A stretch of 64,000 nucleotides of DNA from Mesostigma viride (lineage: Eukaryota > Streptophyta > Mesostigmatophyceae > Mesostigmatales > Mesostigmataceae). This document shows positions 15,439-64,000 of the stretch, piece by piece; the first letter of the stretch is position 1; each line of letters opens with the position of its first letter. The stretch spans positions 1-64,000 of the forward strand of contig RPFO01000412.1 of NCBI GenBank assembly GCA_009746045.1, written 5' to 3'. The translations under genes and the position numbers were made by a program. A model generated the notes under the pieces. It did no database searches, had not been told where the DNA came from, and worked only from the letters and a program-made list of their open reading frames with translations.

Positions 15439-15479
15439 ATTAACCATGAAATTGGAAATATGTCCACAGGATCGCGAAA

Positions 15480-37571: not shown

Positions 37572-37587
37572 GAAATAAAGTAAAACT

Positions 37588-38862: not shown

Positions 38863-38893
<31 letters not shown>

Positions 38894-38909
38894 ACGGCAC
38901 GGCAACGGA

Positions 38910-38951
<42 letters not shown>

Positions 38952-42712: not shown

Positions 42713-42986
42713 TTCTCACCATCACCAAGGAGTTGGGTGACCCGGCCTCAGGGCCAATTCAGGTGTTTTGCGACAACACTGGTGCTGTGGCTCTGTCACG
42801 AGACCCTGTTCACCCTCGGCGTACCAAGCACATCGACGTCAAGTACCACTACATTCGCGCGAAGGTCGCGGATGGCACCGTTCAGGTGTCTCACCTTCCT
42901 GGGGCAGCGATGATCGCCGACATGCTCACCAAGGCACTACCGAGCCACGTTTTGTGGAGCTCAGACACAAGTTGTTGGGTATTTGA
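42690..42986 (+). pseudogene. pol: Copia pol part 3: end of RNase H
   Basis: Continues part 2 in another frame: TITKELGD, CDNTGAVALSRDPVHPRRTK, then HIDVKYHYIRAKVADG and MIADMLTKAL. One more shift at about 42940 is needed to reach the usual end, EPRFVELRHKLLGI followed by a stop at 42984-42986. The final motif is typical of copia RNase H C termini. Confidence 0.88.
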
Positions 42987-45499: not shown

Positions 45500-45591
45500 C
45501 TACAACGGCGACGTGGTGGATGGCCGGCCGCATGGCAAGGGCGTGCTCCTCTGGAGCAACGGCGCCCGATATGTGGGCGCCGTGGTGCAAG
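45500..45591 (+). CDS. MORN gene exon 1 of those found (MORN 1 and part of 2)
   Basis: Acceptor CTTACCAG, donor CAAG/GTGAGG. It encodes YNGDVVDGRPHGKGVLLWSN and then GARYVGAVVQ. It begins with the last base of a split codon, so at least one exon lies upstream. It ends one base into a Gly codon that exon 2 completes. Confidence 0.85.
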
Positions 45592-48500
45592 GTGAGGTGG
45601 TAGGGGAGGGGGAGGGGAGGAAGGGAGGGGGGGGGGGGGGGGGCCAACAAACGCTGTCCTCTGCTGGAGTAGTGTGGGATGGATGTGTGGCGGCGCCGCA
45701 ACATGATCCTAGGATGCAAGGTAGCGCGGGTTTCCCCGACAATATTTTCCTAATCCAACCCTCTTGGGTTAGGGGGTTGCCTTGCAAAGCCGTAGGCATA
45801 GGCATAGGGTAGGGTAGGGTACCATAGGGGAGGGGAGGGGAGGGAGGGGAGGCGCCACCATGCAACGTAGCTTGTAGCATGGCACATGTAGCAACGTGGC
45901 TTGTAGCATGTGGGTTCTCAATGGCACGGGGCCGAGTGGGGAAGAGAAGGGTAGGTTGAGATGGGTGGGGAGGGGACGGGCTTGGGCAGACAGGTGCCCT
46001 TCTCTCTTACGCGTTCAGCAATACGTTCCTCTGTCTACCGCTTTTTGTAAGACATCTGTTACACCAACGCATCATCACACTGGTGCAGCGGCACATGATA
46101 CTGGCCCATCGAATTGTTTCACTACATGGGTTTGTTGTACTGGTCCATTGCACGGTTCCATTGTATTATCCGTCCCATTTTGATATCTGTCTACAATATC
46201 ATTCCTTGGCGCCTGCTGGGCAGCCCATGCAAATTTGGTGTGCTGTGCCCTTGTCTTGTTGTCATTAACAATGTATTCCTCCGTGGTCGTGGCATGCATG
46301 GGAGACGGTGCCCACACTATCTGCACAGCTAGCGCATTCTGTCGTGATGTTAGTAGTATTGCTCCTCCTTTGTTATGAATGTGCGACAAAGCAGTCACGG
46401 AACTTGCCACGAGCAGTGTCATGTCCGTACATTTGACGATTCAGCCCGCAATCCAGTATTTCTTTCCTCTCCCCCTAATCCCGTCCCCCAACCACCCCAC
46501 AGAGCTCCTCGCATATCTTGCAACCCATATTCCCCACACACCCTACCCCCAATCCCCAGACCCTTTTGTTTCCATCAACACTCTTGTAAGCTTTCCCTCA
46601 AAACGTCTATCAGAGACGACCACCCTACCAGAGCGGCTGCCAGCATACCCAGGGAGGGTCACCAAGGAGCTTCCCTCATCGCCCCCACGTGGGATACTCA
46701 TTCTTTAGCAACACGAGTCCTCACAAACACCCTCTGGTCACGCTACCCTGGCCTGCAGGGGAGATGGAAGGGACGGGCCGGCTCCAGTGGCCGGACGGCA
46801 GCACATACTCCGGGCAGTGGCTGCGCGGCCGCATGCACGGCCAGGGCAAGCTGGAGGTAATGCGGGCGGTCCCTACGATCTGTTTATAGTGTCGGACCGG
46901 ATACGTGCGGAGAACCACCTGAATGGTTGGATAAATTCATTTATCATGCTAGAGGCGAGGCGAGCAGTCCCCACGATCCATTTAATGGTATCTTATATGT
47001 TGGGAACTGAATCCCTGCGGAAGCACCAATCAAGCAATCCGTTTATCAGGCTACAGAAGGGGCGGGCGGTCCCTATGATCTTTCTAATCCATGCTCTATC
47101 AACCGGTATCGGGGGCATGCGGAAGGTGCATGCGGAAGCACATGTAGCCATGCTCTATCAAACGGTATCGGGGCTACGCGGAAGGTGCATGCGGAAGCAC
47201 AAGTAGCCATGCTCTATCAAACGGTATCGGGGGTATGCGGAAGTAAATGTCATTGTTGTCACAGCTCGGGCAGGCTGGAGGTGAGGCAAGCTGCCTGCGG
47301 GGGCAGATGCAGATACCTGCACGCCTGCACATCGTTGGGTACAGCGGGCAGTCATGAGGTCTTTCCGTGGAGTGGTATACCGGACAACTGAGATGTCTAC
47401 GTCAGCTACAGTTCCTGTACAAGGCTAGCGGCGAGACAGTTGGCCGGGCGTTTTTTTCTGCAAACTATCTGTGGGGTTTTGTGTACCTGCGGAAAACGTT
47501 TCTTCTGGGGGATCGCCGCGGCTCATTTTTCCCCTTTTGTTTTCTCAACATTTCCTGCACTAGTGCTTTTGTCTAAGCCCTGAAAACTTGCTGTTTGAGG
47601 TCAAGCGACATAATAGGTCATCCGACATAATAGGTCACCCGCTTGTATGAGCCCACATGATTGAATGCCCAGATGTCGGCCACGTGGCACGGCCATGATG
47701 TCATGCTGCGTCGCTGCTCCCCCTCGCTAGCTCCTACTTGGTGCTGCTCCCCCTGGCTGCATCACTCTTGGTGTTGCTGCCCATCGCTGCATCACTTGGT
47801 GCAGTGCCGCTTGCTCATGCCCCTTTTATTAGCACAATGCCATATATGCTCGTATTTCACGAGGATCATCGCATGCTTTCCGCGCATGGCTTGCCGCTTG
47901 CTCATGCCCCTTTTATTAGCACAATGCCATATATGCTCGTATTTCACGAGGATCATCGCTTGCTTTACGCGCATGGCTTGTCCACGGTTACCCCCCGACC
48001 ATGGCATAATGACATCTACAAGGCTGACTTTGCGTTCGTGGTTTTTCCTCACTGCGCCTTGCACTACATCACGCACACTGGCCATTCTTAAATGTTTATA
48101 CTACTATAAATAATAACTATGATAATAGCAATAACTCTGATGATTAGAATAACTCTGATGATTCTAATAACTCTGAACGCTGGATCACCCCTATACCTCG
48201 CATATTGTTGGAGATGGTGTCAGGCTGGCAGCTACGAGGGTGTGGCGCTTCATACGTGACTTAACCTTCACACTCACATCACCCGTTCTGACCATGGCAA
48301 CCATCGCGACCACTTAACCCCGCAGATCGCGGGAGATGGCGGCAGCTACGAGGGCGGCTTTGCGTGCGGCCTGTTCCACGGGAAGGGATACCGCCGGTTT
48401 GCCAACGGTGACGAGTACAGGTAGCGTGCATGCAGGCTTTCACAGTAGAATAGTGACCCGCTGGGTATACTTAAAGCCTTGTTCCTGGAGTAGCTTCGAT

Positions 48501-51500
48501 AATAGCAGCCAGAGCTATATTAAAACCCGGATCCTTCAGACTTGTGACCTGCGCTGATTGTCTCTTTGACATCCCAGGAAATCTGAGTTAAACCAGTCCA
48601 AATTGTCACTTTGCGGTGGCCATGAGGGGCAGTAAGCAGTTCTAGATGATTGGCTGTTGTAGCTAGAGTATTTTCGGGGTCGGTGAGCCGCCTGCCTTCC
48701 CATCCTCTCTTTTCCCCTTCCCACCTCTCTTCGCACCTTCCCAACTTCTTGGGTCAACCTCCCCACTTCCCCCACCTCCTCCCCGTCCCGACCTCCTCCC
48801 CTTGCATATAACCCATGCCTGGCGTCGCTCTCCCCTGTACCATGGCCTCCCTACCGGGAACCTTTCTCCTCCTAGACCCCTGTATTACATATACTTATGA
48901 ACACTCCACGTATTCTGTTTACGGTCTCCCATCCATGCTGCCTGCAACGTGGACAGGGGCTCATCCGCACAGACCCATATTCTCTAGTACCCAAGGCTTG
49001 CACCTTGTTAGGGAGTTGGAGTGCCAGGTACATGGTGTGGGCAAGTTCGTGCACACTCCCACATCCCCCGACTCCCTAAGAATACTGTCTGCCTATATCC
49101 TGGCCAGGGACTGTCTTTGCGAGGGCCAGCTGCATGGCGTGAACAAATACGTACTCAAGAACCTCACATTCTCGCCGACCCCTATTCCCTGATGATGCCA
49201 TTCGTTTGCATCCTTGCCAGGGGCTCCTTTTGCGAGGGCCAGCTGCACGGCGTGGGCGAGTTTGTGCACAAGGCCAGCCAGTGGCGGTGTCGCGCCGAAT
49301 GGGAAGCCGGCGAGATCTGTGGCATGGGGCGCGCCGTGTGGGCCGACGGTCTCCAATACGTGGGCCAGTGGCTGCACGGAAAACCGGAGGGATACGGTGA
49401 GTTCGGACATATTCTGTTCAAAGTTTGAATAGGACGGAAGCCGGAAGGCTACACTGAGTCCATGTAGGCAGTGCCGTGATAGGCGGGTGGAGGCGGGCGC
49501 AGAGGTTACGATGAGTGCAGGCAAGTAAGCCGAGGGGCGTATGTCTGGGTAAAGCAAACCCGAGTGGCTACGGTGAGTCCGTGGCATATTGTGGCGGTGA
49601 CAAAGCGTGAGGGGTGTGGTGGATGTGGTGGCAAATCCTAGGGCGGAGGCAGGCTGGTGGGAGGGATGGGATGGGTTGTCTTGTGCCAGGAACTTGGCTA
49701 TTTTTCCCTTCCATTAGAATTTTCTCTTCCAACGCAGCCGGTTGAAGTCATGCTCTTGTTAATAGGGGCGGCATGTCTCCGCCCAACCTTGGTAAGCTGT
49801 GTGACATTGATTTCCTACATTCGTTGTTGTTTCCTGCATGGTACTGACGCATTTTGTGATTTTTTGGCTTACATGGGCATCAAGGTCTGGGAGACTACCT
49901 TGTGACATGCCGCTGACTAGCTTGTGACATGCCGCTGACTACCTTGTGACATGCCGCTGACTACCTTGTGACATGCCGCTGACTACCTTGTGACATGCCG
50001 CTGACTACCTTGTGACATGCCGCTGTGCATCTGTGCACACTTGTACTGGACCGGCTTGGTTCCGCACCGGTCTCAAAAGCTTGCCCGTACTAGTATCATG
50101 CGCATGATGTTTCCTTTTCTCCCATATTACTTAAGTTACGGCTTACCTACTCATATTACTGGTACCATCGCCTGGTCGCAACTTGCACTCATGCGCGGTG
50201 TGGCCTAACGGGCCGACTACTCTGCGCGTACCCCTCTTTGTGTGCTTACGCGGTTCCTTTACCTGTCGGAGCCTGTACTTGGCACTCATGTGCGGGCAAC
50301 AGGCAGCCTGGTGTGGCCCAACGGGGCGTCCTACGAGGGCGACATGGCCGATGGGCTGCCCCACGGTTTTGGCACCAAGCAGTTTGGTGAGTTAACATGG
50401 ACCATGGAGGCGGGACGTGAGTGGTATAGCATCGCCATCCGTTTTTAGAGCAGGAAGGCTTGTGCACATTTGTCTTTCTGGAAGTGCCCGCATATGCCCC
50501 ATAAACGGGCTACTCCCCAGTTTGGTTTGGATACGGGATACGGTATACTGGATACGAGATACAGGCTAGTATGCTCCCTTTCAAGGTACCCAGATGTGCA
50601 CCTGTCCCCAGATGTCCACGTATCACTACGTTATATTTATCAACGCGTATACTATCACCAGGTTCTATTTTTTTCTTCGCTCTGTGTCAAGATGTGTGCC
50701 CTTCATCATCTACACTGTGTGGCATCGTAAACTGCATGAGCGCAGTGAATGGCGCCCGCTATGTCGGCCTTTTCTCTCAAGGAGACATCCTGCACCAGCC
50801 CAGCAGCAGCAGCAGTGGCGGCGGCGGTGGTGGCAGCGGTGGCAGCAGTCAACGTGTCGCCACGGCTGGCAGCACAACAACCTCCAACTCGACCGGTTCG
50901 CCCGCCTCCCGGGTGGCCACCCCGTCCACCACGCCCGTCACCGCCCCCCTCGCGTGCGCCAGGGACCCTGACCACGCGATGGAGGTCCAGAAGGCTCTTC
51001 TTGCGATGAGCCTGCGGTCCCGTGGGTGGGTCAACGCGAACGCGGGCAGTGGCTGGGTGGGGGAGTGGGCACGCGACGAGATGGAGGACCGGGTGAGGAG
51101 CGGTGGTGGGAACGAGGGTAGGAACGATGGTGTGCAGAATGCAGGGATAAACCATGCGTTCGGCGATAGCACGGGTACTGCGCTCCAAGCCAAGCCGCTG
51201 CCTGTGTTGCTACGGGACGAGCACGGCTTCCCTCTGAGCATCATGGAGTACCCCGACGGGTCATGGTTCCAGGGGTATGTGGCCAGCGGGATGCCGCTGC
51301 CAGGGCCCGGGCGCAGGGTGTTTGAGAACGGAGCGAGCTTAGAGGGCACGTTCATCGCGGCAGCACCATCGGAGGACAACGATGGGGGGAGTAAAAGCGG
51401 GGCGCCTGCGGCGAGGGGGCTGTTCGGGCGCCGAGTATCATCCAATTCGAATCGGAAAGGGGATCCGTCGGGGGCTTCGCCAGCTGCTGGGCCCAAGGCT

Positions 51501-54500
51501 GTAAATAATAGCAGCAACAACGCCAGTAACAGTAACAGTAATGTGACAGATGGCAGCCAGGATGGTGCAAGCAATGGACTCGGGCCCAACAGCCTCGTTG
51601 GGCCGGGCTCTGGGGGACCCGCTGCGGCTGTCAGTAGCGGGATCAGCGGGTCCACTGCTGCGTCTACTGCCAGCATGGCCTCTTCCTCTGCTGCCACTCC
51701 TCCCACCAGCGGGGGATCTGGGGGCACATCAGGGGCACGGATGTCTGGGAGCCCCTCCGCCCCGAGACCTGCCGTGGCGCGACTCGTCCTGACTGGCGAA
51801 GGGGTCCGGTGCTGGGCAGATGGCAGCACTTATGAGGGCATGCTGCAGGAAGGGCGGCCGGTCGGCAAGGGCCGGTTTACGTGGGGCAGCGGACCGGACA
51901 GCTGGAGCTTTGTGGGGCGGGTGAGCGAGGAGACGGGGGTGGTGGAGGGGTGGGGCAAGCTCACGTGGCGGATGGCAGAGCACGGGCGCTGCAGCTACGA
52001 GGTGGGTCCTTTCCCATGATGGTGTCTTCAGGAGTGCGATGTGCAGCTACGAGGGGGGGGGGGGGGAGGGAGAGGCCAAGAAATTGTAGGTCAAGAAATG
52101 TTTGAATGTGGGTCGGTGCAGACGTTACGAAGTGCGAGGGTATATACGAGGTGGGCCATCTCATGGGCTGTTGCAATACTGCTTCTACGTGTAATAATAG
52201 CGCATGGGTATGGGGTGGGGGTGTCACGGTGGAAGGTGGCGGATGCCAGAGCACGGGCGGTGCACACCACGAGGTGGGTCCTCGTGTATGTTCTTGTCCG
52301 AGCGATCATGTGGTGTGTGGCTCTGGCATGCTTGCCCGCTCGGGATGGGGAGCGACGAGCTTGTGCATACGGGTGAACTGTGTGAAATCGTTTGGTACCA
52401 TTCCGGATTCGAACACAGGCCCTCTTTCATGATTTCGCGGCTATAGGGGTCTCCTGATCTGAAGGCATCCCGAGCGATAGCCCACCTGCGAAAAAGCTCT
52501 TTACTGGAGAGCGGTGCAAGTGCGTTCAAAATTATCCTATTCGAACCAGTGGATCAAATCGAACTGCTAGCCCCACGGGGGCGGATGCGTATGCATCATG
52601 TGTATGCATACAGGTAAACTGTGTATGCATACGGGTAAACTGTGCATGCATATGGGTAAACTGTGTATGCATTTTGTGAGCTCACGCTCGTATTATCTAT
52701 GACCTGCGGAAGTCTCAAAGGGGGAGGGGAGGCCGCAGTAGACAGGTCTGACTTGGTAGTATGAGGGGGGGGGGTACGGTAGTGTGGGGGGGGGTACCGG
52801 GGACGGTACTGTGGACCGGGTCCAGTTGTGTGGACCGGGGGCAGTCCTGTGGACCGGGGGCGGCGCGGCGCCACTGGCCTGGTGGTCAGTGGGCTGGCGT
52901 CCGCCACCCCACCTAGGTAAGACGGCGGCTACTTAGGGTTGTGGCGGGGCAACAACCAGTCCTCTTTGCAGCTCCCACCCACCCGCCCTTGCTGCCATGA
53001 GGATGTTACAAAGCCCAGGTCCTCTTGACTGGCCCAGGTCCCTATGGCTGGTTAAGTGATGTTTCGGCCCGTTTTGTGTGGCCTAGTTAGCTTAGAAACT
53101 GCAGATTCTTAGGTTGGCTAATGACTTGGACGTGGGCCTACCACGCATTTGTAATAAACATGTATTCTCTGGCAGCCCCTCACTCCAATGGACATAAGCA
53201 GCAATTGGATACGGGTAAACTGTGTATGCATACGGGTAAGCTGTGCATGCATACGGGTAAATTGTGTATCCATACGGGTAAACTGTGATGCATACGGGTA
53301 AACTGTGCATGCATACGGGTAAACTGTGCATGCATACGGGTAAAGTGTAAACTGTGCATGCATACGGGTAAACTGTGTATGCATACGGGTAAACTGTGTA
53401 TCCATACGGGTAAACTGTGCATGCATACGGGTAAACTGTGCATCCATACGGGTAAACTGTGTATCCATATGGGTAAACTGTGTATGCATAAGGGTAAGCT
53501 GCGTATGCATACGGGTAAACTGTGTATGCATACGGGTAAGCTGTGTATGCATACGGGTAAACTGTGTATGCATACGGGTAAGCTGTGTATGCATACGGGT
53601 AAACTGTGTATGCATACGGGTAAGCTGTGCATGCGTACGGGTAAATTGTGTATCCATACGGGTAAACTGTGCATGCATACGGGTAAACTGTGCATGCATA
53701 CGGGTAAAATGTGTATGCATACGGGTAAACTGTGTATGCATACGGGTAAACTGTGCACACGGATAGCGTGTGTGTGCGTGAGACACCCCATGTGTTTAAC
53801 AGGGCTCATATTGCTACGTCATCCACAACTACGTCATACTACTTTGCTTAACAGGGCTCATTCTGCTATGTCATCTGGACGCTGCATCCGATGGCATTAA
53901 ACGGATCCTATGTGTTGTTATAGTAGTATCATCATCATGTTACAATTGTTACCATTCTCTGATTTTCGGGTGGACTGACGATTGCCGGCATCTGCAACCA
54001 TCGCTGGCCTTTATCTCTCTGTGGCGCTCTCTGCCACATGGCCATGTGTTTCCCTTCCAGGGGGACTTCCAGCAAGGGTTGTTCCACGGGCAGGTGCGTA
54101 CCCAGTGCTTCTTGGAAGCGTGATTGGTCACGGTACTTGAATCATGGTCGTTGTACCTGCTTGTGGAAGCCGTAGGCTTGTTGTTTTGGCGGATTGGGCA
54201 TGCGTTTTCCTTTTTGGTAGGCTAACCTTGGCTCCCCGTAGATCGTTTATGTGGAGCCTGACAGTGTCCCGTATTCGTGGCTCCCTGCGTGATGCTTGTC
54301 CTATGGGCAAGGGGCAGGGGATATGGGGCATGGGGCATGGGGGATGGGGCAAGGGCACGGGCGCTTGCACGTGCATGGGTACGGTATTGTATGGTATGGT
54401 ATGGTATAGGAGCTGATGTGCATTCACATGCCTTGCATTGACACCTTGCATTCGTGCAGTCGTGTGCCTTGCGTTGGTTTGCCTGGCACATGTATGCCTT

Positions 54501-57500
54501 GCACTCATACTACTAAGCCTCCGTATGCCTTGCACTTATATGCCTTCAATCATATGCCTTGATTTCAATCACCCTGCATTCATGCATTCTCGCGCCTTGC
54601 ACTTGTATGGCTGGAGTTCATATGCCTTGCACTAAATGCCTCGCGTTCATATTCTGTCACACCGCACAGGGCGAGGTCCACTTTGGCAGCGGGGGCCTCT
54701 ACCGCGGCGAGTTCTACCACGGCATGTACCACGGGAAGGGTGTGTTCATCTGGCCGTCGGGGCTGTACGGCGACGGGATGTCCTGCTCATATAGCGGCAC
54801 GTGGGCGCGCGACCAGATGCAGGGGCAAGGCCGGCTGGAGTGGGTGGACGGCGACTACTTGGAGGTGCGTTCGTGGGGTTGGTTGTGTTTCAATTCGTTT
54901 GGGCACATGGAACGCATCACGCATTCCATGTTTTGGGATAGTATCATGCTGTTTTGAGGACATCCCCACATAGGTCACTTTTTGGAAAGATCTGACATTC
55001 CCCTGGTAAATGCAAGAGCCGTCTCCCACCGACTTTGCAGATCATCTGTGCTTGCTTCTCAGCTTTTTAATAGCGTCCTGGGCAGTGGCTGCGCTGTGCT
55101 CTTTCAATAGTAGTATTCATTTACTGTGGATGAAGCGAACTAGATGTTTGAAATGGATGCTTTCAGCGGCTTTCTCTTTCAGCTCGCCCAACCGTATCCA
55201 ATCACTTTGCACCCTTTATGCGCTCGAAGTGCTTACCTGCTGCTCACTCTGCAATTGCCGCTCCATACGAATTCACGATTTACCTGGCCGTGCCCACCGT
55301 CTCCTCCCCCTTTCTCCCCGCACCTTCTCTTTTCTCTTCCCCTCCCCATGTCCCATGTCCTCTTCCCTATTGCCGCCCCTGGCCAGGGCACATTCAAGGA
55401 CGGCCAGCTCGTCAAGGGCAAGGGGCGGCGCACGCTGGCCTGTGGTGACGTCTGCGAGGGTGGCTGGGTGGCCGGCAGCCTGCACGGATATGCCGAGTAC
55501 AACTGGAAGGACGGCAGCTACTACCTCGGTGGTGTGGACCGGGGCAAGCACTCGGGGTACGGCAAGAAGGTGGGTGGTCTGCAGCGTTATTAGTACCCCT
55601 ATTTTTGCCGAGTACAACTGGAAGGACGGCAGCTACTACCTGGGTGGTGTGGACCGGGGCAAGCACTCGGGGTACGGCAAGAAGGCCCGTTTGTTATAGG
55701 GGTTGTTTTCTTACGACTATGTAGTAGTAGATCTGTGTAGAAGTTGATAGATGTTGAATGCTTGGGTCGGCTATGTATTGCCCTTTATACTATGACTTTA
55801 GACAGCGAAAAGTTTGCGCATACCCTTCCGCAAACTGTTGCCGCGTGCGAGTAGCGTTTCGCGGCGACCGCGATTGGGGGGTCGACCGTAGGGGTTCCCT
55901 TACATGCGTGAAGTTAGCTTGGTTGCGTCCCCTGGTTGCGCGCCAAAGTTTGTCCCATTTGTGCCACCATTGCGGCCAAACTTTTGTCAGACAGCAAACC
56001 GTGCGATTTTGGGCGGGCGGGCTGAAAGTTGTTTGCCCAAACTGTTGCCGAAAGTGTCGCGCAAACTCTTCCGTAGTCGAGTAGTGTGGCCTATTGACCA
56101 CAGAATTTGCGGCGTTGCGACCGATTCAAGCGGTATGTGCGTGAGAAACGTGGTTGGGTTGTTGCCGGGTTATTCGCTGTCTCATTGAGTTGTAACCCAC
56201 GCCCCTCGAGTAAGGAACCAATAAATGATCGGTTTGAAACTGACCACGGGTTGTTATTAGGCGATACTATATATGTTTGTTCCCAAGGTTAATTACCGGT
56301 GGAAACATCTCTTTGTCAAGAACGAGTACCGCGTTGGCACTTGGCTCCCACGTTGGCAGTTGTAACCCACGCCCCCGAGTAAGGGGCCAATAAATGATCG
56401 GTTTGAAACTGACCACGGGGTTCTATTAGGCGATACTGTATGTGTTAAAACAGCCGAGTCCAGCCGTTGAGTTGAGTTGAGAGTCGTGGGCAGGATGGTG
56501 GGATCACACAACTATGCTGTACGAGCCCGCTGAGTTCAGCATTGGCCAAGGTGGTGGGGTCACACAACTATACCGTACGAGCTTTCTGTAGTACAACAAC
56601 GGGTCGCTGCGTACCTGTCGAGTAAGGGACCAATAAATGATTGGTTTGAAACTGACCACGGGTTCTTAGAGAGCTGCAACCGTTTTCTCCAACGTGTCCA
56701 AAAAAGGTGTCCGAGGCGGCGAAACGCTAGGGTTTTATACCGTAGTGGCTGAAATCACATTGCGAATAAATCTTTTCGAATGACCCCCCGAAAAGTGCTA
56801 AAATAATACTTCAATTTACCCCGTAAAGTATGAAAACCGGGAGGCGCTACACCTGGTTCTGGCTGCAGGCCGCGGCGCAGCTAGATGAAGTGGAGCGCCG
56901 CGCTTGCCGCGCCGCGCCGCGTCGCGCCAGATTGAGAACGCGTTCAATTTTGAATTCTAGGCCCTATTAGCACTGATTCATAGGGGCCCTATTAATTAAG
57001 ATTAGGGCCTTATGTCATCCTGGTACTCACTTAATTGTCAGATAGGAACTGCGCTTGGTGGCCGGTGGGTAATTAATGTACTTGATAGGTTAGAATCCAA
57101 GTCAGACACTGAACTAGGCGCCCTAATATAAACAAGCTCCCGGGCTCGAAGTTTACCTAACCCGGGCTGAACTTTCCCCGCAAAGTGTCAAAACCATGCA
57201 GAAAAACCCTCGAAAAATTATTTATTCGCAATGTGATTTCAGCCACTACGGTAGACAAGACGCTTGTGTATGCGGCTCGTGCATTGGCAACGCAACTGCG
57301 ACGGCTACCGCAACTTTCTATTACTCACCGTTTTTTGCATCTGTTCTTTGTATTTTCGACTCATGGCTGGAATGTCAACCCAACCAAAGCTGAGCCATTC
57401 AGCTAGGATGGCTGGCTTGAGGCACTCTTTTGACAAGGCACAAGTAACAAAGCATTTGGAGTATAGGGGGAAAAGGAATGGGCAGGCAAAAGAAAGTTAT

Positions 57501-60500
57501 ACAAACAAAATAGAGGCAATGGACGAAAATGAGAAGGTTGCACACGCAATTAAAAGGAGGGGGATCGTGAATAAGCATCGGGAAAACGAAACTCAAGAGA
57601 GACATGCTGAACGCAAGCAGAAGGCCACCCTGGTGAAATCAATTCCTATTCCTGACCGTCTTTGTTTTTTTCTGGATCAGGTCATTGAGTCCGAGACCAA
57701 CCCTACTCGGAAGGCCTTACTACAATCAGTCAGGGATCTTGGATATGTTAAGATTGCGGGTTCTAAATACATTGACAAAAGGACCGTTGATCTGCTTAAG
57801 GAGGTCGGGAAAGAACTCCAAGCCAAGGAGTCGGCAGGAGTGAATCTTTTTAGGAACGTGCCCGATGATTTGACAAATGACCGAACGGCATACAAAATAG
57901 CGTTGGATGATGAGGGGTATGATTGTATTCGCAGACCCTTGCAAGGTGTTGTTGACCAGGTCTTGGGCGAGAAGTATGCCGTCCACAATTGCTACGCATT
58001 ATATAGCAAGCCTGGTTGTGATCCCCAGTGCCCACACTCTGATATGGCCCGTAAGCTTGAGGAACATCCCACTTACTCTTTTTTGCTGTCGAGTGACCCT
58101 AAGGCAAAGTGGATCTCTTTTGATGGCAGTTTGCAAGCCACTGGACACAATGACCCCATGAACAACTTGAGGATACGTGAGGGTCAAGGTGTTAAGAAGT
58201 CCAATCTAACATTTGGGAAAGGCGCAATGATCATGTTCCATGCTTGCCATGTGCATGCCGGTGCATCATACCCTAAAGAAGAATACCCGCAAGGCCACTG
58301 GCGCTTTTTTTTCCAAGCATCCCGTATGGGTGCGGGGGGCAATGACACTGCTGCCGTCTCATATTATACCTATAAACCAAAAGCAGAGTAAGGTCTTAAC
58401 AAGAACGCGGGCTTCGCCCCCGGGCCCCCGGTAGTAACCAATATTGTGCCTCTCCGGCGTTTGTGGCCGGTCTCCGGCCGGACCCGTCACCTACTCTACT
58501 ACAACCTTCTACGGAACCTGTGCACATTTCACCTCAGATGTTAAATACATGTACCATGCGCATACATACAGAGAATGGCATTATGTGCATTATAATGAAT
58601 CAAGCATTATAAATGCATAAAATAAAACACAACCGTCTTTGCCCCTCACTGATTCAGGAGGTCGCGACTCACATATTAAGACCTTACTCTGCTTTTGGTT
58701 CATAGGTATAATATGAGACGGCAGCAGTGTCATTGCCCCGCGCACCCATACGGGATGCTTGGAAAAAAAAGCGCCAGTGGCCTTGCGGGTATTCTTCTTT
58801 AGGGTATGATGCACCGGCATGCACATGGCAAGCATGGAACATGATCATTGCGCCTTTCCCAAATGTTAGATTGGACTTCTTAACACCTTGACCCTCATGT
58901 ATCCTCAAGTTGTTCATGGGGTCATTGTGTCCAGTGGCTTGCAAACTGCCATCAAAAGAGATCCACTTTGCCTTAGGGTCACTCGACAGCAAAAAAGAGT
59001 AAGTGGGATGTTCCTCAAGCTTACGGGCCATATCAAAGTGTGGGCACTGGGGATCACAACCAGGCTTGCTATATAATGTGTAGCAATTGTGGACGGCGTA
59101 CTTCTCGCCCAGGACCTGGTCAACAACACCTTGCAAGGGTCTGCGAATACAATCATACCCCTCATCATCCAACGCTATTTTGTATGCCGTTCGGTCATTT
59201 GTCAAATCATCGGGCACGTTCCTAAAAAGATTCACTCCTGCCGACTCCTTGGCTTGGAGTTCTTTCCCGACCTCCTTAAGCAGATCAACGGTCCTTTTGT
59301 CAATGTATTTAGAACCCGCAATCTTAACATATCCAAGATCCCTGACTGATTGTAGTAAGGCCTTCCGAGTAGGGTTGGTCTCGGACTCAATGACCTGATC
59401 CAGAAAAAAACAAAGACGATCAGGAACAGGAATTGATTTCACCAGGTTGGCCTTCTGCTTGCGTTCAGCATGTCTCTCTTGAGTTTCGTTTTCCCGATGC
59501 TTATTCACGATCCCCCTCCTTTTAATTGCGTGTGCAACCTTCTCATTTTCGTCCATTGCCTCTATTTTGTTTGTATAACTTTCTTTTGCCTGCCCATTCC
59601 TTTTCCCCCTATACTCCAAATGCTTTGTTACTTGTGCCTTGTCAGAAGAGTGCCTCAAGGCAGCCATCCTAGCGGAATGGCTCAGCTTTGGTTGGGTTGA
59701 CATTCCAGCCATGAGTCGAAAATACAAAGAACAGATGCAAAAAACGGTGAGTAATAGAACGTTGCGGTAGCCGTCGCAGTTGCGTTGCCAATGCACGAGC
59801 CGCATACACAAGCGTCTTGTCTATAAAACCCTAGCGTTTCGCCGCCTCGGACACCTTTTTTGGACACGTTGGAGAAAACGGTTGCAGCTCTCTAAGAACC
59901 CGTGGTCAGTTTCAAACCAATCATTTATTGGTCCCTTACTCGACAGGTACGCAGCGACCCGTTGTTGTACTACAGAAAGCTCGTACGGTATAGTTGTGTG
60001 ACCCCACCACCCTGCCCACTGCTGAACTGAGCGGGCTCGTACAGTATAGTTGTGTGATCCCACCATCTTGCCCACGACTCGCAACTCAACTCATCGGCTG
60101 GACTCGGCTGTTTTAACACATAGACTATCGCCTAATAAAAACCCATGGTCAGTTTCAAACCGATCATTTATTGGTCCCTTACCCAACCAAAAGCAGAGTA
60201 AGGTCTTAATATGTGAGTCGCGACCTCCTGAATCAGTGAGGGGCAAAGACGGTTGTGTTTTATTTTATGCATTTATGATGCTTGATTCATTATAATGCAC
60301 ATAATGCCATTCTCTGTATGTATGCGCATGGTACATGTATTTAACATCTGAGGTTATTGCACTACAAATTACAAAGTCTTTTGTACGTTTTCCTTACCCA
60401 GGCGTAGTATTTTGGGGACGGAGCCGGTGGAGCATGCATGTCATTGTTTATGAAAGCAAAGAGTACCCTAATATGTGAGACAACTATGACTAGACGTTGT

Positions 60501-63472
60501 TGATAGATCAAGGAGACAACCAGCGCAGGCCCGAAATCGGAAGAATCCGGACCATGGTAGATCGAGCCTGCCTTTAGAGTCTTATGCATTAATTTATTAA
60601 TGGACAAACTAAGATATCTATATGGGAGCGAAGATGCGACATTTCGGTTACGCCAATACAAATTCGCGGTCAAACATATATCTCGATAGAGGCATGCATA
60701 TGGGTCTTTTTTAACTTCAAGGCACGTCATATTAAAATCAATCATTAAGTCATAAATACCATATACCCGAAAAGGAGCCAATTTTACCGCGATCCATACA
60801 AGCAAAATCATTGTGCAATTTTTTCCCCCTTTTTTATGTGTACTTGTGACCTTTTTATAATTAATCTCGGCCCCCGCCCCCCGCTAATTTGCTAAAAAGG
60901 AGCCCATTTTACCACTCCATACAAGCATAATCATTGTGCAATTTTTTTTCCCGTTTTTTTTAAGTGTGTACTTGTGACCTTGTAGTGTACTTGTGACCTT
61001 GTGTTGTTTTAGTTTGTTTGTGTATGTGTGTTTGTGTAGCCTTTTTACCTACGTGAGTGTGTTTTTTTTTCATAAACTTTTTGTGTTACCCATTCTCTTA
61101 TTCCAAGTGCAAGTATACGGAAAGTACTGAAGTTGCGGTAGCGTCGCGGATACGTTTCTACTTTCTAGATCGATGGCGCAGTCGACGGTTACAATGAAGA
61201 GAAGCGGTGTTAACCCCACGGTTACAAATGGTAAGGACCTCAGTCGCACATCTCCATAGCGCCATGGGAAGGGCAAATATCTCTAGAATCTCCGTTTGGC
61301 CGGGAACTAGCTTACGATTTTCACAGATTTTCACTCAAGTTGGTCGCCCGGACTGGAATATTTGCTCGCGCTCAGTGGGCCCTAAATGTGCACAGGTTCC
61401 GTAGACGGTTGTAGTAGAGTAGGTGACGGGTCCAGCCGGAGACCGGCCACAAACGCCGGAGAGGCACAATATTGGTTACTACCGGGGGCCCGGGGGCGAA
61501 GCCCCCGTTCTTGTATTGGGGGTTAAGAATTACGTCAGCACCTTTTGAGGTTCTTTTGTGGTCAAATATAGAAACAGTGAGGTATGGCAAGAAGGTCGAT
61601 CCTTCATAGTTTTGTGGATTGCTTTCATTTGCTACAGCAGGACTACATGCTTACGCCACATGTCTGCTTTTATTGTTGTGTATTTCAATGTGACATACCT
61701 CTAGTGTCTCCACCCACCCCACCTCCAGTTTCTCCACCCACCCCACCTCCAGTGTCTCCACCCACCCCACCTCCAGTGTCTCCACCCACCCCACCTCCAG
61801 TTTCTCCACCCACCCCACCTCCAGTTTCTCCACCCACCCACCTCCAGTTTCTCCACCCACCCACCTCCAGTTTCTCCACCCACCCACCTCCAGTTTCTCC
61901 ACCCACGCCACCTCCAGTTTCTCCACCCACCCCACCTCCAGTTTCTCCACCCACCCCAGCTCCAGCTTCTGCACCAACCATTGATTCTTGTGTTCTCGCT
62001 ATTCCCAGATGGAGCCATGGGAACCACATGGAACCGAAAATACACTGCTCTGCAGCTTGCTGAGTATGCTTCCTCGGCCACATGTCGTGGCCCCAACTCC
62101 TTCGCTTGCAACCCATGTTCGCCCTCATGGCCAGGTGTGGGCGTCGGGGGAAATGTATCCGGACCCGTTTGTGTTGTTCCGCGGCTCACATCTCCTACAC
62201 TACACTTGCTACCGGCACTGTAGTCATCCTTGATTGCCATCATCACCAGGTGTGGGCGTCGGGCGGATTCTGTCTGGACCCATGAGTGTTGGTTGGTGTC
62301 TCACACCTCCTAAGCTATACTTGCTACCGGCACTGTACCTAACTACTTCGTTGCCTTTATCACCAGGTGTGGGCGTCGGGGGAGATGTACGTGGGCCACT
62401 TCTCCCATGGCCAAGAGGATGGGCAGGGCGTGCTGTTCGATAAGCTGCGGCGGCGCCGCGTGCTCGGGCGATGGAAGGTGAGAAGCAGGAAGACAGTGGA
62501 GCACCGGATTACAGCACAAGTGGGCGTGGGTGCTCAACGGGTGAAAGATGATTGCTCGTCTCCATCCCCGTTTCGTTGATTATCTATGGTTTCGCACCAG
62601 AGAACAGCAACCATGGTACGGTGACTACGGCGTAGTGACCACGGTACAGTGAACATGGTAACAGTAACGGCGCGTTTCCTTATTTCTCTATACCCAAACG
62701 TCTAGACGTAGTGACCATGTGACCATGGTATTGTGACCGTGGTACTGTGATCGTGGTAGTGGGTAGTGGCAGTGGCGCTTCATTATCGCTTACATAGCAG
62801 CATTTTCATGCTACTAATTACTCTTTCCCTTGGGCAAGAGCTAGGCAGGCAAGTTGAACAGAAACAACAAGCTGTGACATCAGGAAAATGGCTAGGTAAC
62901 TCCCCCTTCCCATCATTCCCACATTGTTATCTGAGTGACCACGTCTGAAGTACCACATGATGTGTGAATAACCACATGTGGCGTGCTGTGTACTGTTTTC
63001 CGTATCTTGCTTGGTTCTTTCTTTCGCCCTCGTCTTTAGCAGCGATTCTTGAGCCCCGCTTCTTAAGCCCGTAGCGTAAGAGTTCCCAATGAGCATCTTC
63101 TAAAGGCGTGCATCTATCGTATGTATTCAACTAGTATCATACTTCTGGTATCATACTTCTGGTGTCATACTTCTGGTATCATGTTTTGTTCTTCTTCGTT
63201 TTGTTGTTGTTTTTGCTACGATATTTTCTCATCAACAGGAGGGCACGCTGGCGGAAGAGATCGTGGAGAAAGTGTGCGACCCCACGAGTGACGGCACTGT
63301 GTACCTGGACATGTCGTCCGGTAGCGCCAAACCGTGGGGGGGTGGGACCGGGCATGCGATCGTCATCTACACCAAGAAGGGAGACGAGGGCGTGTACGTG
63401 GGGACGCTGGACGCGGGGCGGCGCGAGGGGGGAGGGATCCTTGTGGACGCGCAGGAGGTGGTCAGCATCGGG
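45500..63472 (+). CDS. Large MORN-repeat protein gene, 11 internal exons (both ends missing)
   Basis: Exons: 45500-45591, 46759-46856, 48326-48420, 49221-49396, 50303-50386, 50746-52001, 54061-54093, 54670-54864, 55387-55569, 62367-62477 and 63239-63472. Together they give about 852 codons without a stop. All introns are GT-AG. Each junction keeps codon phase and also the MORN period (Y-x-G-x-W/F-x3-G-x2-x-G-x-G), which is strong support for the model. There are about 18-20 MORN motifs: eight in a row, a Ser/Gly/Ala-rich linker of about 300 residues in exon 6, then about ten more. MORN arrays in other proteins bind lipids or act as scaffolds at membranes, cilia or the cell cortex; no catalytic domain is visible in this part. 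The first exon(s) and the last are outside what I can see. Intron 9 (6.8 kb) carries the palindromic element pair. Several exon edges have decayed local copies. Confidence 0.88.
46759..46856 (+). CDS. MORN gene exon 2
   Basis: Acceptor GCCTGCAG, donor GAG/GTAATG. Encodes GEMEGTGRLQWPDGST, then YSGQWLRGRMHGQGKLE. Joining to exon 1 restores a perfect MORN motif. Ends in phase 0. Confidence 0.88.
46860..47245. repeat. Tandem repeats in MORN intron 2
   Basis: Units of about 95-104 bp begin GCGGGCGGTCCCTACGATCT and recur at about 46862, 46957 and 47061. Then comes a unit of about 60 bp (CATGCTCTATCAAACGGTAT), three times. The first unit starts at the exon 2 donor itself. Confidence 0.8.
47806..47979. 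repeat. 87-bp tandem duplication in MORN intron 2
   Basis: Two nearly identical copies of a unit starting GCCGCTTGCTCATGCCCCTT, at 47806 and 47893. Confidence 0.9.
48326..48420 (+). CDS. MORN gene exon 3
   Basis: Acceptor CCCCGCAG, donor TACAG/GTAGCG. Encodes IAGDGGSYEGGFACGLFHGK and GYRRFANGDEY. It ends after two bases of an Arg codon. Confidence 0.87.
48545..48570 (+). repeat. Truncated copy of the 17290-17613 element end, in MORN intron 3
   Basis: GACCTGCGCTGATTGTCTCT and a few following bases match the shared end with two changes. It lies inside intron 3 of the MORN gene. No clear target duplication. Confidence 0.45.
49020..49160 (+). repeat. Two decayed copies of the exon 4 5' edge
   Basis: GTGCCAGGTACATGGTGTGG (49021) and GGCCAGGGACTGTCTTTGCG (49102) each match the acceptor and first 40-45 bases of exon 4 (CCAG/GGGCTCC...GTGCACAA). 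The second still encodes CEGQLHGVNKY. Confidence 0.8.
49221..49396 (+). CDS. MORN gene exon 4
   Basis: Acceptor CCTTGCCAG, donor TACG/GTGAGT. Encodes GSFCEGQLHGVGEFVHKASQ, then a less regular motif (WEAGEICGMGRAVWADG), then YVGQWLHGKPEGYG. Two decayed copies of its 5' edge lie upstream (acceptor-equivalent positions 49028 and 49108). Confidence 0.88.
49893..50024. repeat. 22-bp tandem repeat, six copies, MORN intron 4
   Basis: Unit GACTACCTTGTGACATGCCG plus CT, nearly perfect. Confidence 0.93.
50303..50386 (+). CDS. MORN gene exon 5
   Basis: Acceptor GGGCAACAG, donor TTTG/GTGAGT. Encodes SLVWPNGASYEGDMADGLPH and GFGTKQF. The first two bases complete the Gly codon begun in exon 4. Confidence 0.88.
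50746..52001 (+). CDS. MORN gene exon 6, long, with disordered linker
   Basis: Acceptor GAGCGCAG, donor CGAG/GTGGGT. It opens with VNGARYVGLFSQGD, then a Ser/Gly run. Later come MEYPDGSWFQGYVASGMPLP (an irregular MORN) and a long Ser/Asn/Gly/Ala stretch at about 51400-51780. It ends with WADGSTYEGMLQEGRPVGKG and the motif ending CSYE. The linker splits the protein into two MORN blocks. The 3' edge is partly copied at 52237-52281. Confidence 0.88.
52237..52281 (+). repeat. Decayed copy of the exon 6 3' edge
   Basis: TGGCGGATGCCAGAGCACGG through CACGAGGTGGGTCC matches 51966-52010 (exon end and donor) with a few changes. A shorter fragment, TGCAGCTACGAGG, sits near 52041. Confidence 0.75.
52598..52676. 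repeat. 21-bp minisatellite, small block in MORN intron 6
   Basis: About four copies of TGTGTATGCATACGGGTAAA plus C, the same unit as 53205-53760. Confidence 0.9.
53205..53760. repeat. 21-bp minisatellite, about 26 copies, MORN intron 6
   Basis: Unit TGTGTATGCATACGGGTAAA plus C, with a GTATGCATAC palindrome in most copies. Seven codons per unit leave three frames open on the minus strand and one on the plus (heptads such as MHTGKLC). It lies in an intron, so the 180-222-codon frames are by-products. Confidence 0.95.
54061..54093 (+). CDS. MORN gene exon 7, 33-bp microexon
   Basis: Acceptor TTCCCTTCCAG, donor CAG/GTGCGT. Encodes only GDFQQGLFHGQ, in phase 0 on both sides. CSYE + GDFQQGLFHGQ + GEVHFGSG makes a regular MORN motif, which argues that this tiny exon is real. 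Confidence 0.8.
54670..54864 (+). CDS. MORN gene exon 8
   Basis: Acceptor CACCGCACAG, donor GGAG/GTGCGT, 65 codons, phase 0 on both sides. Encodes GEVHFGSGGLYRGEFYHGMY, HGKGVFIWPSGLYGDG and YSGTWARDQMQGQGRLEWVD. Confidence 0.9.
55387..55569 (+). CDS. MORN gene exon 9
   Basis: Acceptor CCCTGGCCAG, donor AAG/GTGGGT, 61 codons, phase 0. Encodes GTFKDGQLVKGKGRRTLACG, EGGWVAGSLHGYAEYNWKDG and YLGGVDRGKHSGYGKK. Its last 79 bp are repeated with one mismatch at 55606-55684. Confidence 0.9.
55606..55684 (+). repeat. Copy of the 3' part of exon 9
   Basis: Begins TGCCGAGTACAACTGGAAGG and repeats 55491-55569 with a single change (CTCGGT to CTGGGT). It ends GAAG/GCCCG where the real exon has GAAG/GTGGG, so the donor is lost, and no acceptor directly precedes it. 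Confidence 0.93.
55700..56190. other. Intron 9 sequence, nothing recognised
   Basis: Contains scattered (G)CAAACT and AGTTTG words in both orientations but no regular repeat, RNA gene or frame worth naming. Confidence 0.5.
56191..56440 (+). repeat. Direct duplication carrying the GAGTAAGG...GACCACGGG motif
   Basis: GTTGTAACCCACGCCCC plus the ~45-bp motif beginning GAGTAAGG and ending GAAACTGACCACGGG occurs at 56191 and 56360. A third copy of the motif is at 56620, with inverted copies at about 59899-59942 and 60142-60186. Confidence 0.85.
56741..57251. mobile_element. 511-bp MITE with 32-bp terminal inverted repeats and TA target duplication
   Basis: The ends CCGTAGTGGCTGAAATCACA... and ...TGTGATTTCAGCCACTACGG are inverted for about 32 bp. 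TA flanks both ends (56739-56740 and 57252-57253). Copy B has the uninterrupted sequence GGGTTTTATAGACAAGACGC (inverted at about 59812-59831), a precise empty site. TA duplication points to the Tc1/mariner group. It has no coding capacity. Confidence 0.93.
57264..58391 (+). CDS. Element-encoded protein with 2OG-Fe(II)-oxygenase-like pattern, copy A
   Basis: An intact frame of 375 codons. The in-frame Met at 57363 (MAGMSTQPKLSHSARM) is a likely start; the 33 residues before it are hydrophobic (LLLTVFCICSLYF) and may be leader. The N-terminal half is charged and helical (GKRNGQAKESYTNKIEAMDE). The C-terminal half has PQCPHSDMARK (H258, D260), then LTFGKGAMIMFHACHVHAGA (H326, H329, H331) and GHWRFFFQAS (R347). 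H-x-D, a second His about 70 residues on and an Arg about 16 later is the metal and co-substrate layout of Fe(II)/2-oxoglutarate oxygenases. That assignment is inference from motif spacing; substrate unknown. Copy B is about 98% identical and also intact. Confidence 0.75.
   Translation: MCMRLVHWQRNCDGYRNFLLLTVFCICSLYFRLMAGMSTQPKLSHSARMAGLRHSFDKAQVTKHLEYRGKRNGQAKESYTNKIEAMDENEKVAHAIKRRGIVNKHRENETQERHAERKQKATLVKSIPIPDRLCFFLDQVIESETNPTRKALLQSVRDLGYVKIAGSKYIDKRTVDLLKEVGKELQAKESAGVNLFRNVPDDLTNDRTAYKIALDDEGYDCIRRPLQGVVDQVLGEKYAVHNCYALYSKPGCDPQCPHSDMARKLEEHPTYSFLLSSDPKAKWISFDGSLQATGHNDPMNNLRIREGQGVKKSNLTFGKGAMIMFHACHVHAGASYPKEEYPQGHWRFFFQASRMGAGGNDTAAVSYYTYKPKAE
58403..58672. other. Spacer between the palindrome arms (3' region of copy B)
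   Basis: Reverse complement of 60195-60354 plus 61384-61514. It contains a GC hairpin (GGGCTTCGCCC) near the left side and an AATAAA-like word (minus strand ATTTTATGCAT region) after copy B's stop. No frame of its own. Confidence 0.7.
58673..60186 (-). mobile_element. Palindrome element, copy B (right arm, no MITE)
   Basis: Inverted partner of copy A. Its 3' side continues through the 270-bp spacer (58403-58672) to a GC-rich end that reads CGGGGGCCCGGGGGCGAAGC on the minus strand. That region matches the third partial copy (60187-61514), which lets the 3' terminus be placed near TTCTTGT. Confidence 0.65.
58684..59811 (-). CDS. Element-encoded protein with 2OG-Fe(II)-oxygenase-like pattern, copy B
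   Basis: An intact 375-codon frame on the minus strand, the mirror of 57264-58391. About ten residues differ (for example HFDMARK for HSDMARK, VPD for IPD, MGARGND for MGAGGND, YEPKAE for YKPKAE). The proposed metal ligands H258, D260 and H331 and R347 are unchanged. Both copies have changed at the DNA level yet neither has a stop or frameshift, which suggests selection or recent homogenisation. As in copy A, translation may start at the internal MAGMSTQ. It lies antisense inside intron 9 of the MORN gene. Confidence 0.75.
   Translation of the reverse strand: MCMRLVHWQRNCDGYRNVLLLTVFCICSLYFRLMAGMSTQPKLSHSARMAALRHSSDKAQVTKHLEYRGKRNGQAKESYTNKIEAMDENEKVAHAIKRRGIVNKHRENETQERHAERKQKANLVKSIPVPDRLCFFLDQVIESETNPTRKALLQSVRDLGYVKIAGSKYIDKRTVDLLKEVGKELQAKESAGVNLFRNVPDDLTNDRTAYKIALDDEGYDCIRRPLQGVVDQVLGEKYAVHNCYTLYSKPGCDPQCPHFDMARKLEEHPTYSFLLSSDPKAKWISFDGSLQATGHNDPMNNLRIHEGQGVKKSNLTFGKGAMIMFHACHVHAGASYPKEEYPQGHWRFFFQASRMGARGNDTAAVSYYTYEPKAE
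60187..60354 (+). mobile_element. Palindrome element, partial copy C, first piece
   Basis: Starts CCAAAAGCAGAGTAAGGTC, that is, with the last codons and stop of the element's frame, then matches copy B's 3' region with few changes up to AACATCTGAGGT. Confidence 0.85.
60355..61383. other. 1029-bp insertion splitting copy C
   Basis: AT-rich, no recognised gene. The longest frame (minus, 60811-60362, 149 codons) matches nothing I know. It contains the 66-bp element end at 60507-60572 and a tandem duplication of about 126 bp (GGAGCCAATTTTACC at 60773, GGAGCCCATTTTACC at 60899). I see no clean target duplication at its ends. Confidence 0.6.
60507..60572 (-). repeat. 66-bp copy of the 17290-17613 element end, in MORN intron 9
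   Basis: Reverse complement of 17550-17615 with a few mismatches, including the ACCATGGT core and the CTGCGCTGG...CCTTGAT terminus. It lies inside the 1029-bp insertion that splits the third partial palindrome element. Confidence 0.7.
61384..61514 (+). mobile_element. Palindrome element, partial copy C, last piece with terminal hairpin
   Basis: AAATGTGCACAGGTTCCGTA onward matches the spacer's inverted sequence. It ends at GTTCTTGT, after which B and C diverge. GGGGGCGAAGCCCCC at 61492-61506 folds into a perfect 6-bp stem with a short loop, close to the element's 3' end. Confidence 0.85.
61704..61972. repeat. 24-bp minisatellite, about 12 copies, MORN intron 9
   Basis: Unit CCACCTCCAG(T)TTCTCCACCCA with some 23-bp copies. 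It makes a PPVSPPTP-like frame on the plus strand and W/G-rich frames on the minus strand, but it lies in the intron and the frame is shifted three times inside it. Confidence 0.92.
62131..62366 (+). repeat. Two upstream copies of the exon 10 acceptor region
   Basis: CCAGGTGTGGGCGTCGGG occurs at 62131 and 62246, and then at the true acceptor (62363). Copies are spaced 115-117 bp and share CTTGCTACCGGCACTGTA between them. Both upstream ones retain an AG acceptor. Confidence 0.88.
62367..62477 (+). CDS. MORN gene exon 10
   Basis: Acceptor TTTATCACCAG, donor AAG/GTGAGA, 37 codons, phase 0. Encodes VWASGEMYVGHFSHGQEDGQ, then GVLFDKLRRRRVLGRWK. Two upstream copies of its acceptor region (62135 and 62250) look like decoys. 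Confidence 0.87.
63239..63472 (+). CDS. MORN gene exon 11
   Basis: Acceptor CATCAACAG, donor GGG/GTATGT, 78 codons, phase 0. Encodes EGTLAEEIVEKVCDPTSDGT, a non-MORN stretch with TGHAIVIYTKKGDEG, then VYVGTLDAGRREGGGILVDA. The gene goes on beyond the window or in an exon I could not place. The 3' edge is copied at 63555-63591. Confidence 0.85.
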
Positions 63473-64000
63473 GTATGTTCAGGATGGCTTATGCTTGCAT
63501 TCTGTCAGTTACATTTGAAGACTAACTTCCTGTCCATCATGTCTATGAGCCACTGATGCGCTGGAGGTGGTCAGCATCGGGGTATGTGCGCCGGCATATT
63601 CTACCGTTTACGTGATGACATGTTGTTAAAAATGGATACCGGCACGGTTTGTTTGTTAGCTGGTCCGATTGGCCATAATTGGGGTTCATTATGCTAACAT
63701 GAAGGATGGCACATCTTCATGGATGGAGGCCAGCGTGAAATGATAGCTTTACTGATTAGGGAAAAGGTGTGTTCGGAAGGGTATGCTGGATTCATGCGAG
63801 TATCGTATCGGTGCTGATGTCATCAAGGAGTGCTACGAGTACACGGGATATTTCGAGATGCCAGCACAAGGATGGGTGTGCCCACTTGTGGCAGCGTAGG
63901 GCCGCAGCGCCGCACATGGGTAGTCATTCTACTGAATTTAGCTTCTAATTCTTGCAATGGCGTTAAGGATGTGTCGCGAAGGAATCCCTGTTGTGCGTGC
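63473..64000 (+). other. Start of MORN intron 11, with a copy of the exon 11 3' edge
   Basis: GATGCGCTGGAGGTGGTCAG...GGTATGT at 63555-63591 repeats 63446-63482 (exon end plus donor), 109 bp downstream. No further exon could be supported up to the window end. Confidence 0.7.

What the first reader, a model, noticed from the sequence alone, without database searches (positions are those of the whole stretch)
46759..63591. Exon edges of the MORN gene are repeatedly copied into the adjoining introns
At least five junctions have local tandem copies that include the splice site: exon 4 acceptor (49028, 49108, true 49221), exon 6 donor (true 52001, copy ~52272), exon 9 3' part (true to 55569, copy 55606-55684), exon 10 acceptor (62135, 62250, true 62367) and exon 11 donor (true 63472, copy ~63581). 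A weak case lies after exon 2 (GGGCAGGCTGGAG/GTGAGG at 47268). Spacing is mostly 80-117 bp. One gene showing this five times suggests a recurring process (tandem duplication across junctions, possibly linked to intron growth) that leaves decoy splice sites. I know of no described system that does this routinely.
Basis: partly seen in the sequence, partly recalled or inferred. Interest (0 to 1): 0.78.

Follow-up and report, generated by a model that had tools for sequence, protein, structure and literature searches.

The report
Short tandem duplications overlapping exon edges
In one gene of an unidentified eukaryote, stretches of DNA about 110 letters long have been copied nearly side by side many times, and several copies carry an exon edge into the neighbouring intron; this looks like ordinary copying or repair error tolerated in introns rather than a process aimed at splice sites.

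Summary
The gene is a predicted 12-exon MORN-repeat gene (44650-63472, + strand; 878-aa open frame; 11 GT-AG introns). The copy of the exon end at 55569 stops one base past the junction, so no GT was copied.
A junction-linked process is not established. At score 15, 14 non-array duplication loci: 7 overlap exon edges, 7 are intronic, none purely exonic. A naive model expects 18% at junctions (p=0.006). If pairs with one constrained copy last twice as long, it expects 30% (p=0.09; 0.33 with minisatellites). Other thresholds and borderline calls range from 0.001 to 0.55.
Best reading: recurrent short tandem duplications of roughly 50-130 bp, as made by nick repair, tolerated where the outer splice site still works; intronic copies then drift. 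Unexplained: junction copies cluster at offsets 109-122. The genome-wide test was impossible because the genome search did not complete.

The parts
44650..63472 (+). Predicted MORN-repeat gene, 12 exons (44650-44726, 45500-45591, 46759-46856, 48326-48420, 49221-49396, 50303-50386, 50746-52001, 54061-54093, 54670-54864, 55387-55569, 62367-62477, 63239-63472); may run on past the window
   Evidence: open frame 878 aa through all junctions, GT-AG at 11 of 11 introns; MORN E=2.3e-55
48187..48258 (+). Copy of acceptor region of exon at 48326 (offset 114-122, 47/58); AG lost (AT)
48962..49055 (+). First copy of acceptor region of exon at 49221 (offset 205-215, 69/94); AG aligned at 49012
49066..49159 (+). 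Second copy of acceptor region of exon at 49221 (offset 113, 66/94); AG kept at 49108
50178..50220 (+). Copy of start of exon at 50303 (offset 113-118, 31/38); acceptor lost
52236..52282 (+). Copy of end of exon 50746-52001 with its donor (offset 271-272, 42/46); GT kept
52042..52058 (+). Short nearer copy of the same donor edge (offset 52, 16/17), GT lost, in a G-rich stretch
52145..52162 (+). Short middle copy of the same donor edge (offset 149, 15/18), GT kept; may be chance
55606..55685 (+). Copy of last 79 bases of exon 55387-55569 (offset 115, 79/80); stops one base past the junction, no GT
62113..62267 (+). Two upstream copies of the acceptor region of exon at 62367 (offsets 232 and 117; with the true site a three-unit array of about 115 bp); AG kept in both
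63555..63602 (+). Copy of end of exon 63239-63472 with its donor (offset 109, 41/48); GT kept
46945..46992 (+). Weak copy of donor region of exon 46759-46856 (offset 98, 35/47), GT lost; part of an intronic series that starts 10 bases inside the exon and was counted as intronic
49434..49593 (+). Two weak copies of donor region of exon 49221-49396 (offsets 57 and 176)
   Evidence: exon-only probe not significant (p=0.16)
47089..47243 (+). Purely intronic duplication, 59-bp unit x 2.6 (control locus)
47805..47980 (+). Purely intronic duplication, 87-bp unit x 2 (control locus)
54442..54649 (+). Purely intronic duplication, several offsets including 113 and 128 (control locus)

Best explanation
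The introns of this gene grow by recurrent short tandem (or near-tandem) duplications of roughly 50-130 bp. The likely maker is repair of paired nicks: fill-in of staggered ends followed by end joining. Where a duplicated unit happens to include an exon edge, the outermost splice site still yields the original mRNA, so the mutation is tolerated; the inner copy becomes intron and drifts. Duplications wholly inside exons change the protein and are mostly removed. Junction copies stay recognisable longer than intron-intron copies because one partner is held by selection. Shown here: the copies, their differing identities, intronic neighbours of the same kind, and no purely exonic ones in the size range tested. 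Inferred: nick repair as the maker, neutrality, drift of the copies, slower decay at junctions, and use of the outer sites in the living cell.
For: At score 15 and offsets 40-299, 7 of 14 non-array loci in the gene are purely intronic, 7 overlap exon edges and none is purely exonic. At offsets 30-499 the gene part examined (13.6 kb, arrays masked) has 34 repeat segments of score 15 or more, 15 of them at offsets 90-129; five dinucleotide shuffles of its 11.1-kb part gave 1 in all. Pairs are 70% to 99% identical over 14 aligned copies, so there were many separate events. Similarity can span most of the unit: 94 of 113 bases at 49221; at 62367 a gapped alignment of 153 columns at offsets 115-117, with the two copies matching each other over 110 of 115. 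Exon edges match the intron beside them in 7 of 23 cases but the far end of the same intron in 0 of 22. Mismatches fall 13, 12 and 24 on codon positions 1, 2 and 3 (chi-square p=0.06), the direction expected if the copy drifts freely and the exon changes mainly at silent sites. In rice, tandem duplications make up 70% of insertions at small sizes, decline beyond 125 bp and fall to 5% by 200 bp, ascribed to repair of adjacent nicks (PMC7971508, passages).
Against: Junction loci exceed a naive model: 7 of 14 against 18% (p=0.006; 0.002 at score 14, 0.031 at score 18). One-sided probes also favour exon edges: 7 of 23 against 7.7% of 1111 array-free intron probes, p=0.001 (21% of 1347 with arrays). 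The factor of two is my assumption, not measured. Junction offsets look tighter than intronic ones (109-122 in 6 of 7 against 2 of 7, Fisher one-sided p=0.051, two-sided 0.10; 7 of 7 gives 0.010; chosen after seeing the data). The copy at 55606 is not perfectly tandem: 35 uncopied bases lie between the two copies. Outside the gene, local repeats in the window mostly have other periods (near 185 and 82 bp), so the 90-130 mode is not shown to be genome-wide.
Confidence: 0.72

Rival explanations
1. A junction-directed process: duplications start preferentially at exon-intron borders (for example through nicking or R-loops tied to co-transcriptional splicing), with a preferred unit of about 113 bp.
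For: Junction loci exceed a naive expectation (7 of 14 against 18%, p=0.006; one-sided probes p=0.001); offsets of 6 of 7 junction loci lie at 109-122; in the youngest case (79/80) similarity stops one base past the junction.
Against: Counted from either copy, exon-edge windows are no more covered than intron windows: 7 of 23 against 23% and 32%, p=0.27 and 0.64 at score 15; p 0.17 to 0.82 over scores 12 to 18. Intronic duplications of similar size are as many.
Confidence: 0.14
2. The copies are selected decoy splice sites that regulate output of the gene (unproductive splicing).
Against: 6 of 14 have lost it, and an intronic addition of 100 bases or more usually brings a stop, so one search is weak; no conservation or RNA data.
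Confidence: 0.05
3. Decayed tandem exon duplications: extra MORN-coding exons that lost function.
For: The gene consists of MORN repeats, and tandem exon duplication is common in repeat proteins (recalled).
Against: Exon-interior probes (40 bases or more from an edge) hit in 3 of 294, all overlapping the single 79-base copied stretch. No copy with both splice sites was seen among the 14 aligned.
Confidence: 0.04
4. Assembly artefact.
For: One copy is 79/80 identical.
Against: The other 13 aligned copies differ by about 6-30%, with different offsets and gaps; a haplotype or polishing error does not give that.
Confidence: 0.04

Closest known systems
Short tandem duplications from repair of adjacent nicks (patch-mediated; Vaughn and Bennetzen 2014 and Schiml 2016, known here through passages of PMC7971508 and, for the first, PMC7407515)
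   Same: Unit size mostly below about 130 bp, head-to-tail or nearly so, sometimes with other bases between, recurrent over time
   Different: There shown by comparing genomes of one species or by induced nicks; here only inferred from one assembled gene
Intron gain by tandem genomic duplication (AGGT model; PMC3443670, PMC2891723, passages)
   Same: A local duplication brings splice signals and turns a copied piece of exon into intron
   Different: Here existing introns are lengthened; the duplicated unit spans an existing junction, and the layout of the AGGT model was found in 0 of 22 tests
Internal gene duplication (Gao and Lynch 2009; seen only as a reference in PMC3443670)
   Same: Duplication inside a gene, which can reach exon-intron borders (recalled)
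   Different: Unit here is small and one-sided at each junction; the paper itself was not held
Minisatellites / intronic VNTRs
   Same: The same gene carries 21-24-bp arrays and a 59-bp repeat
   Different: Junction copies number one to three and have a longer period

Membership tests
Short tandem duplication by nick/patch repair | Unit of about 50-125 bp | tested here: met
   Each of the 14 loci has an offset between 52 and 122; junction loci mostly 109-122. The good copy of donor 52001 is at 271 (its 52 and 121 partners are weak)
Short tandem duplication by nick/patch repair | Copies adjacent head-to-tail over the whole unit | tested here: inconclusive
   Most of the unit at 62367 and 49221 (94 of 113); not at 55569 (80 of 115); others too diverged to tell
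Short tandem duplication by nick/patch repair | Ancestral single-copy state in a sister strain | not testable with these tools
   No close relative was found and the own genome could not be searched: the identical genome search was unanswered 11 times
Intron gain by tandem genomic duplication | Intron end copies the end of the upstream exon, or intron start copies the start of the downstream exon | tested here: not met
   0 of 22 probes reach p below 0.05 (11 introns, two probes each, up to 600 bases of intron; mononucleotide shuffles; lowest p 0.060 twice). Old, diverged gains could be missed
Introners | Same element dispersed in many introns | tested here: not met
   44650-55780 against the whole window shows, beyond 700 bp, only one 21-bp array within a single intron (E up to 1e-6, low complexity masked); 61560-64000 was not used as query and the rest of the genome not searched
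Junction-directed duplication process | Excess at exon edges over matched intron positions | tested here: inconclusive

The most novel reading that the evidence does not exclude
In this lineage a duplication process with a nearly fixed step of about 113 bp acts preferentially at exon-intron borders and is a main cause of intron growth, leaving ladders of decoy splice sites beside many exons.
Probability: 0.12. Interest if true: 0.7.

Novelty: new member of a known kind. Interest (0 to 1): 0.34.

Why it matters
It is a clear example of how introns can lengthen by short local duplications and of a likely reason why exon edges turn up inside them: constraint on the exon should keep the pair readable after purely intronic pairs have faded. 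If so, exon-edge copies could serve as a clock for intron growth. If a genome scan did show a real junction bias with a fixed step near 113 bp, it would point to a mutational process coupled to splicing or transcription.

Tried and rejected
Junction bias was tested with exon-edge probes against shuffles, against intron and exon-interior probes, by coverage and by loci (extra counts); the answers differ with the null, and all are reported. The AGGT layout of intron gain was tested and not found (0 of 22). Introner-like dispersal was not seen in the part of the window tested. Decayed whole exons were rejected because exon interiors are hardly copied. A search of viral contigs with the protein of the inverted-repeat element in intron 10 found no relative. 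A search of bacterial and archaeal genomes with the first 223 residues of the MORN protein gave two distant bacterial MORN-like loci (36% and 34% identity), not pursued. The stretch 12.6-22.8 kb gave no near match in plasmids, and Rfam at gathering scores gave nothing in the window. A first exon list had wrong borders and was replaced. Paper searches were seen as listings; searches returned 0, 1 and 4 papers. Passages of PMC8226300 on Chlamydomonas introns gave nothing used. The thought that the host might be a brown alga rests on recall of intron length and GC only and was not settled.

Full report
What was checked. The finding says that exon edges of a MORN gene are repeatedly copied into the neighbouring introns. 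I rebuilt the gene: 12 predicted exons from 44650 to 63472 on the + strand join into one open frame of 878 aa, with GT-AG at all 11 introns, and the protein matches the MORN repeat family at E=2.3e-55. There is no RNA evidence. The species is not known to me; the genome search did not complete (11 identical requests) and the genome is not given as a file. All tests below rest on this one gene.

The observation. I compared the 40 exon bases at each of 23 edges (33 for the short exon) with up to 600 bases of the adjoining intron, leaving the splice consensus out. Seven edges beat all 200 dinucleotide shuffles: acceptors at 48326, 49221, 50303 and 62367, donors at 52001, 55569 and 63472. The same kind of probe against the far end of the same introns gave 0 of 22 below p=0.05. 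Two more donors (46856 and 49396) show weaker copies when intron bases are included. One claim needs correcting: the copy of the end at 55569 is 79/80 identical but stops one base past the exon, so the donor itself was not copied. Across the 14 copies I aligned, 8 keep AG or GT and 6 do not.

What kind of thing it is. The same introns hold local duplications that do not touch exons: 59 bp at 47089, 87 bp at 47805, offsets 113 and 128 among others at 54442, about 100 bp at 46934, and several minisatellites. Clustering ungapped repeats of score 15 or more with offsets 40-299 (minisatellites out) gives 14 loci: 7 overlapping exon edges, 7 purely intronic, none purely exonic. Below that threshold or size range there are exonic repeats: a pair at offset 33 with score 13 in the largest exon and a 12-bp repeat there. 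At offsets 30-499 the 13.6 kb of gene examined has 34 segments of score 15 or more, against 1 in five shuffles of its 11.1-kb part; 15 of the 34 have offsets of 90-129. Elsewhere in the window the same scan gives 38 segments in 12.6-22.8 kb (mostly a degenerate array near 185 bp), 23 in 28.9-32.5 kb (mostly an 82-bp array), 12 in the intron-10 element, 1 in the transposon coding stretch 32.5-43.5 kb and 1 in 43.5-44.6 kb. So the gene's introns are a field of short tandem duplications, and exon edges are part of that field; the 90-130 mode is seen in the gene and is not shown for the genome.

Is there an excess at junctions? It depends on the null, and I give all results. One-sided probes: 7 of 23 exon edges against 7.7% of 1111 array-free intron probes (binomial p=0.001) or 21% of 1347 with arrays; intron probes overlap one another, so p is optimistic. 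Coverage from either copy: 7 of 23 against 23% (p=0.27) or 32% (p=0.64) at score 15, and p from 0.17 to 0.82 at scores 12, 14 and 18; this null is generous to introns, since an intron window can be either member of a pair. Loci, under a 113-bp unit placed at random: 18% expected at junctions, 7 of 14 seen, p=0.006; if junction pairs stay detectable twice as long, 30% expected, p=0.09; with arrays (7 of 19) p=0.037 and 0.33. At score 14 (8 of 15; 8 of 20 with arrays) the four values are 0.002, 0.049, 0.016 and 0.226; at score 18 (5 of 11; 5 of 16) 0.031, 0.209, 0.136 and 0.548. The intronic locus at 46847 starts 10 bases inside an exon; counted as a junction it gives 8 of 14, p=0.001 and 0.031. 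The factor of two is reasoning, not measurement. My conclusion is a possible mild excess, not an established one.

Mechanism. The 14 aligned pairs range from 70% to 99% identity, so events happened at different times. At 49221 similarity covers 94 of 113 bases, and at 62367 a 153-column gapped alignment runs at offsets 115-117: tandem duplication of intron end plus exon start. At 55569 only 80 of 115 bases are copied, so other bases lie between. Mismatches by codon position are 13, 12 and 24 (chi-square p=0.06), the direction expected if the intron copy drifts at all positions and the exon changes mainly at silent ones; some exon bases enter more than once. Passages of PMC7971508 report that in rice tandem duplications start at 70% of insertion events, decline beyond 125 bp and fall to 5% by 200 bp, and ascribe them to repair of adjacent nicks; passages of PMC7407515 describe tandem and partly tandem duplications in rice and attribute them to asymmetrical nicks. 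The sizes here fit. If the outer splice site is used, the mRNA is unchanged; all 8 AG or GT decoys tested would add a premature stop, though any such addition usually carries one.

What it is not. It does not have the layout of the AGGT route of intron gain (PMC3443670 and PMC2891723, passages): 0 of 22 tests. It is not an introner family within the part of the window tested. It does not look like decayed whole exons: exon interiors match in 3 of 294 probes, all overlapping the one 79-base copied stretch. Assembly error is unlikely for the 13 copies that differ by 6-30%.

What remains open. Junction loci have similar offsets, 109-122 in 6 of 7 (donor 52001 counted as outside because its good copy is at 271), against 2 of 7 intronic loci: Fisher one-sided p=0.051, two-sided 0.10, or one-sided 0.010 if 52001 is counted by its weak 121 partner; this was chosen after seeing the data. 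A genome-wide scan would decide it. Verdict: observation confirmed with corrections, special junction process not shown and not excluded, ordinary short tandem duplication most likely.

Noticed in passing
55780-61560 (in intron 10): A nested inverted-repeat element: 57252-58399 pairs with 58676-59823 (98.8%), 56379-56739 with 59822-60182, 58531-58700 with 60185-60354, 58399-58529 with 61384-61514. Each large arm carries a nearly identical 378-residue frame; the + strand one has no Pfam match and no relative found in viral contigs.
   Followed up: partly
1-12552 and 22855-28891: Two long arrays of the same 97-bp satellite, about 130 and 62 copies.
   Followed up: no
32921-42913: A LINE-like frame with endonuclease and reverse transcriptase domains, followed by a Copia-like element with integrase and RVT_2 domains (element names recalled).
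   Followed up: no
about 15450-17000: Degenerate tandem array with a period near 185 bp in an AT-rich part of the window.
   Followed up: no
60507-60576, 17546-17615, 15407-15437: A dispersed 31-70-bp repeat, about 94% identical; the two upstream copies are inverted relative to 60507.
   Followed up: no
45600-45860 and 52599-53757: G-rich runs (read) and a 21-bp minisatellite inside introns 2 and 7 of the MORN gene.
   Followed up: no
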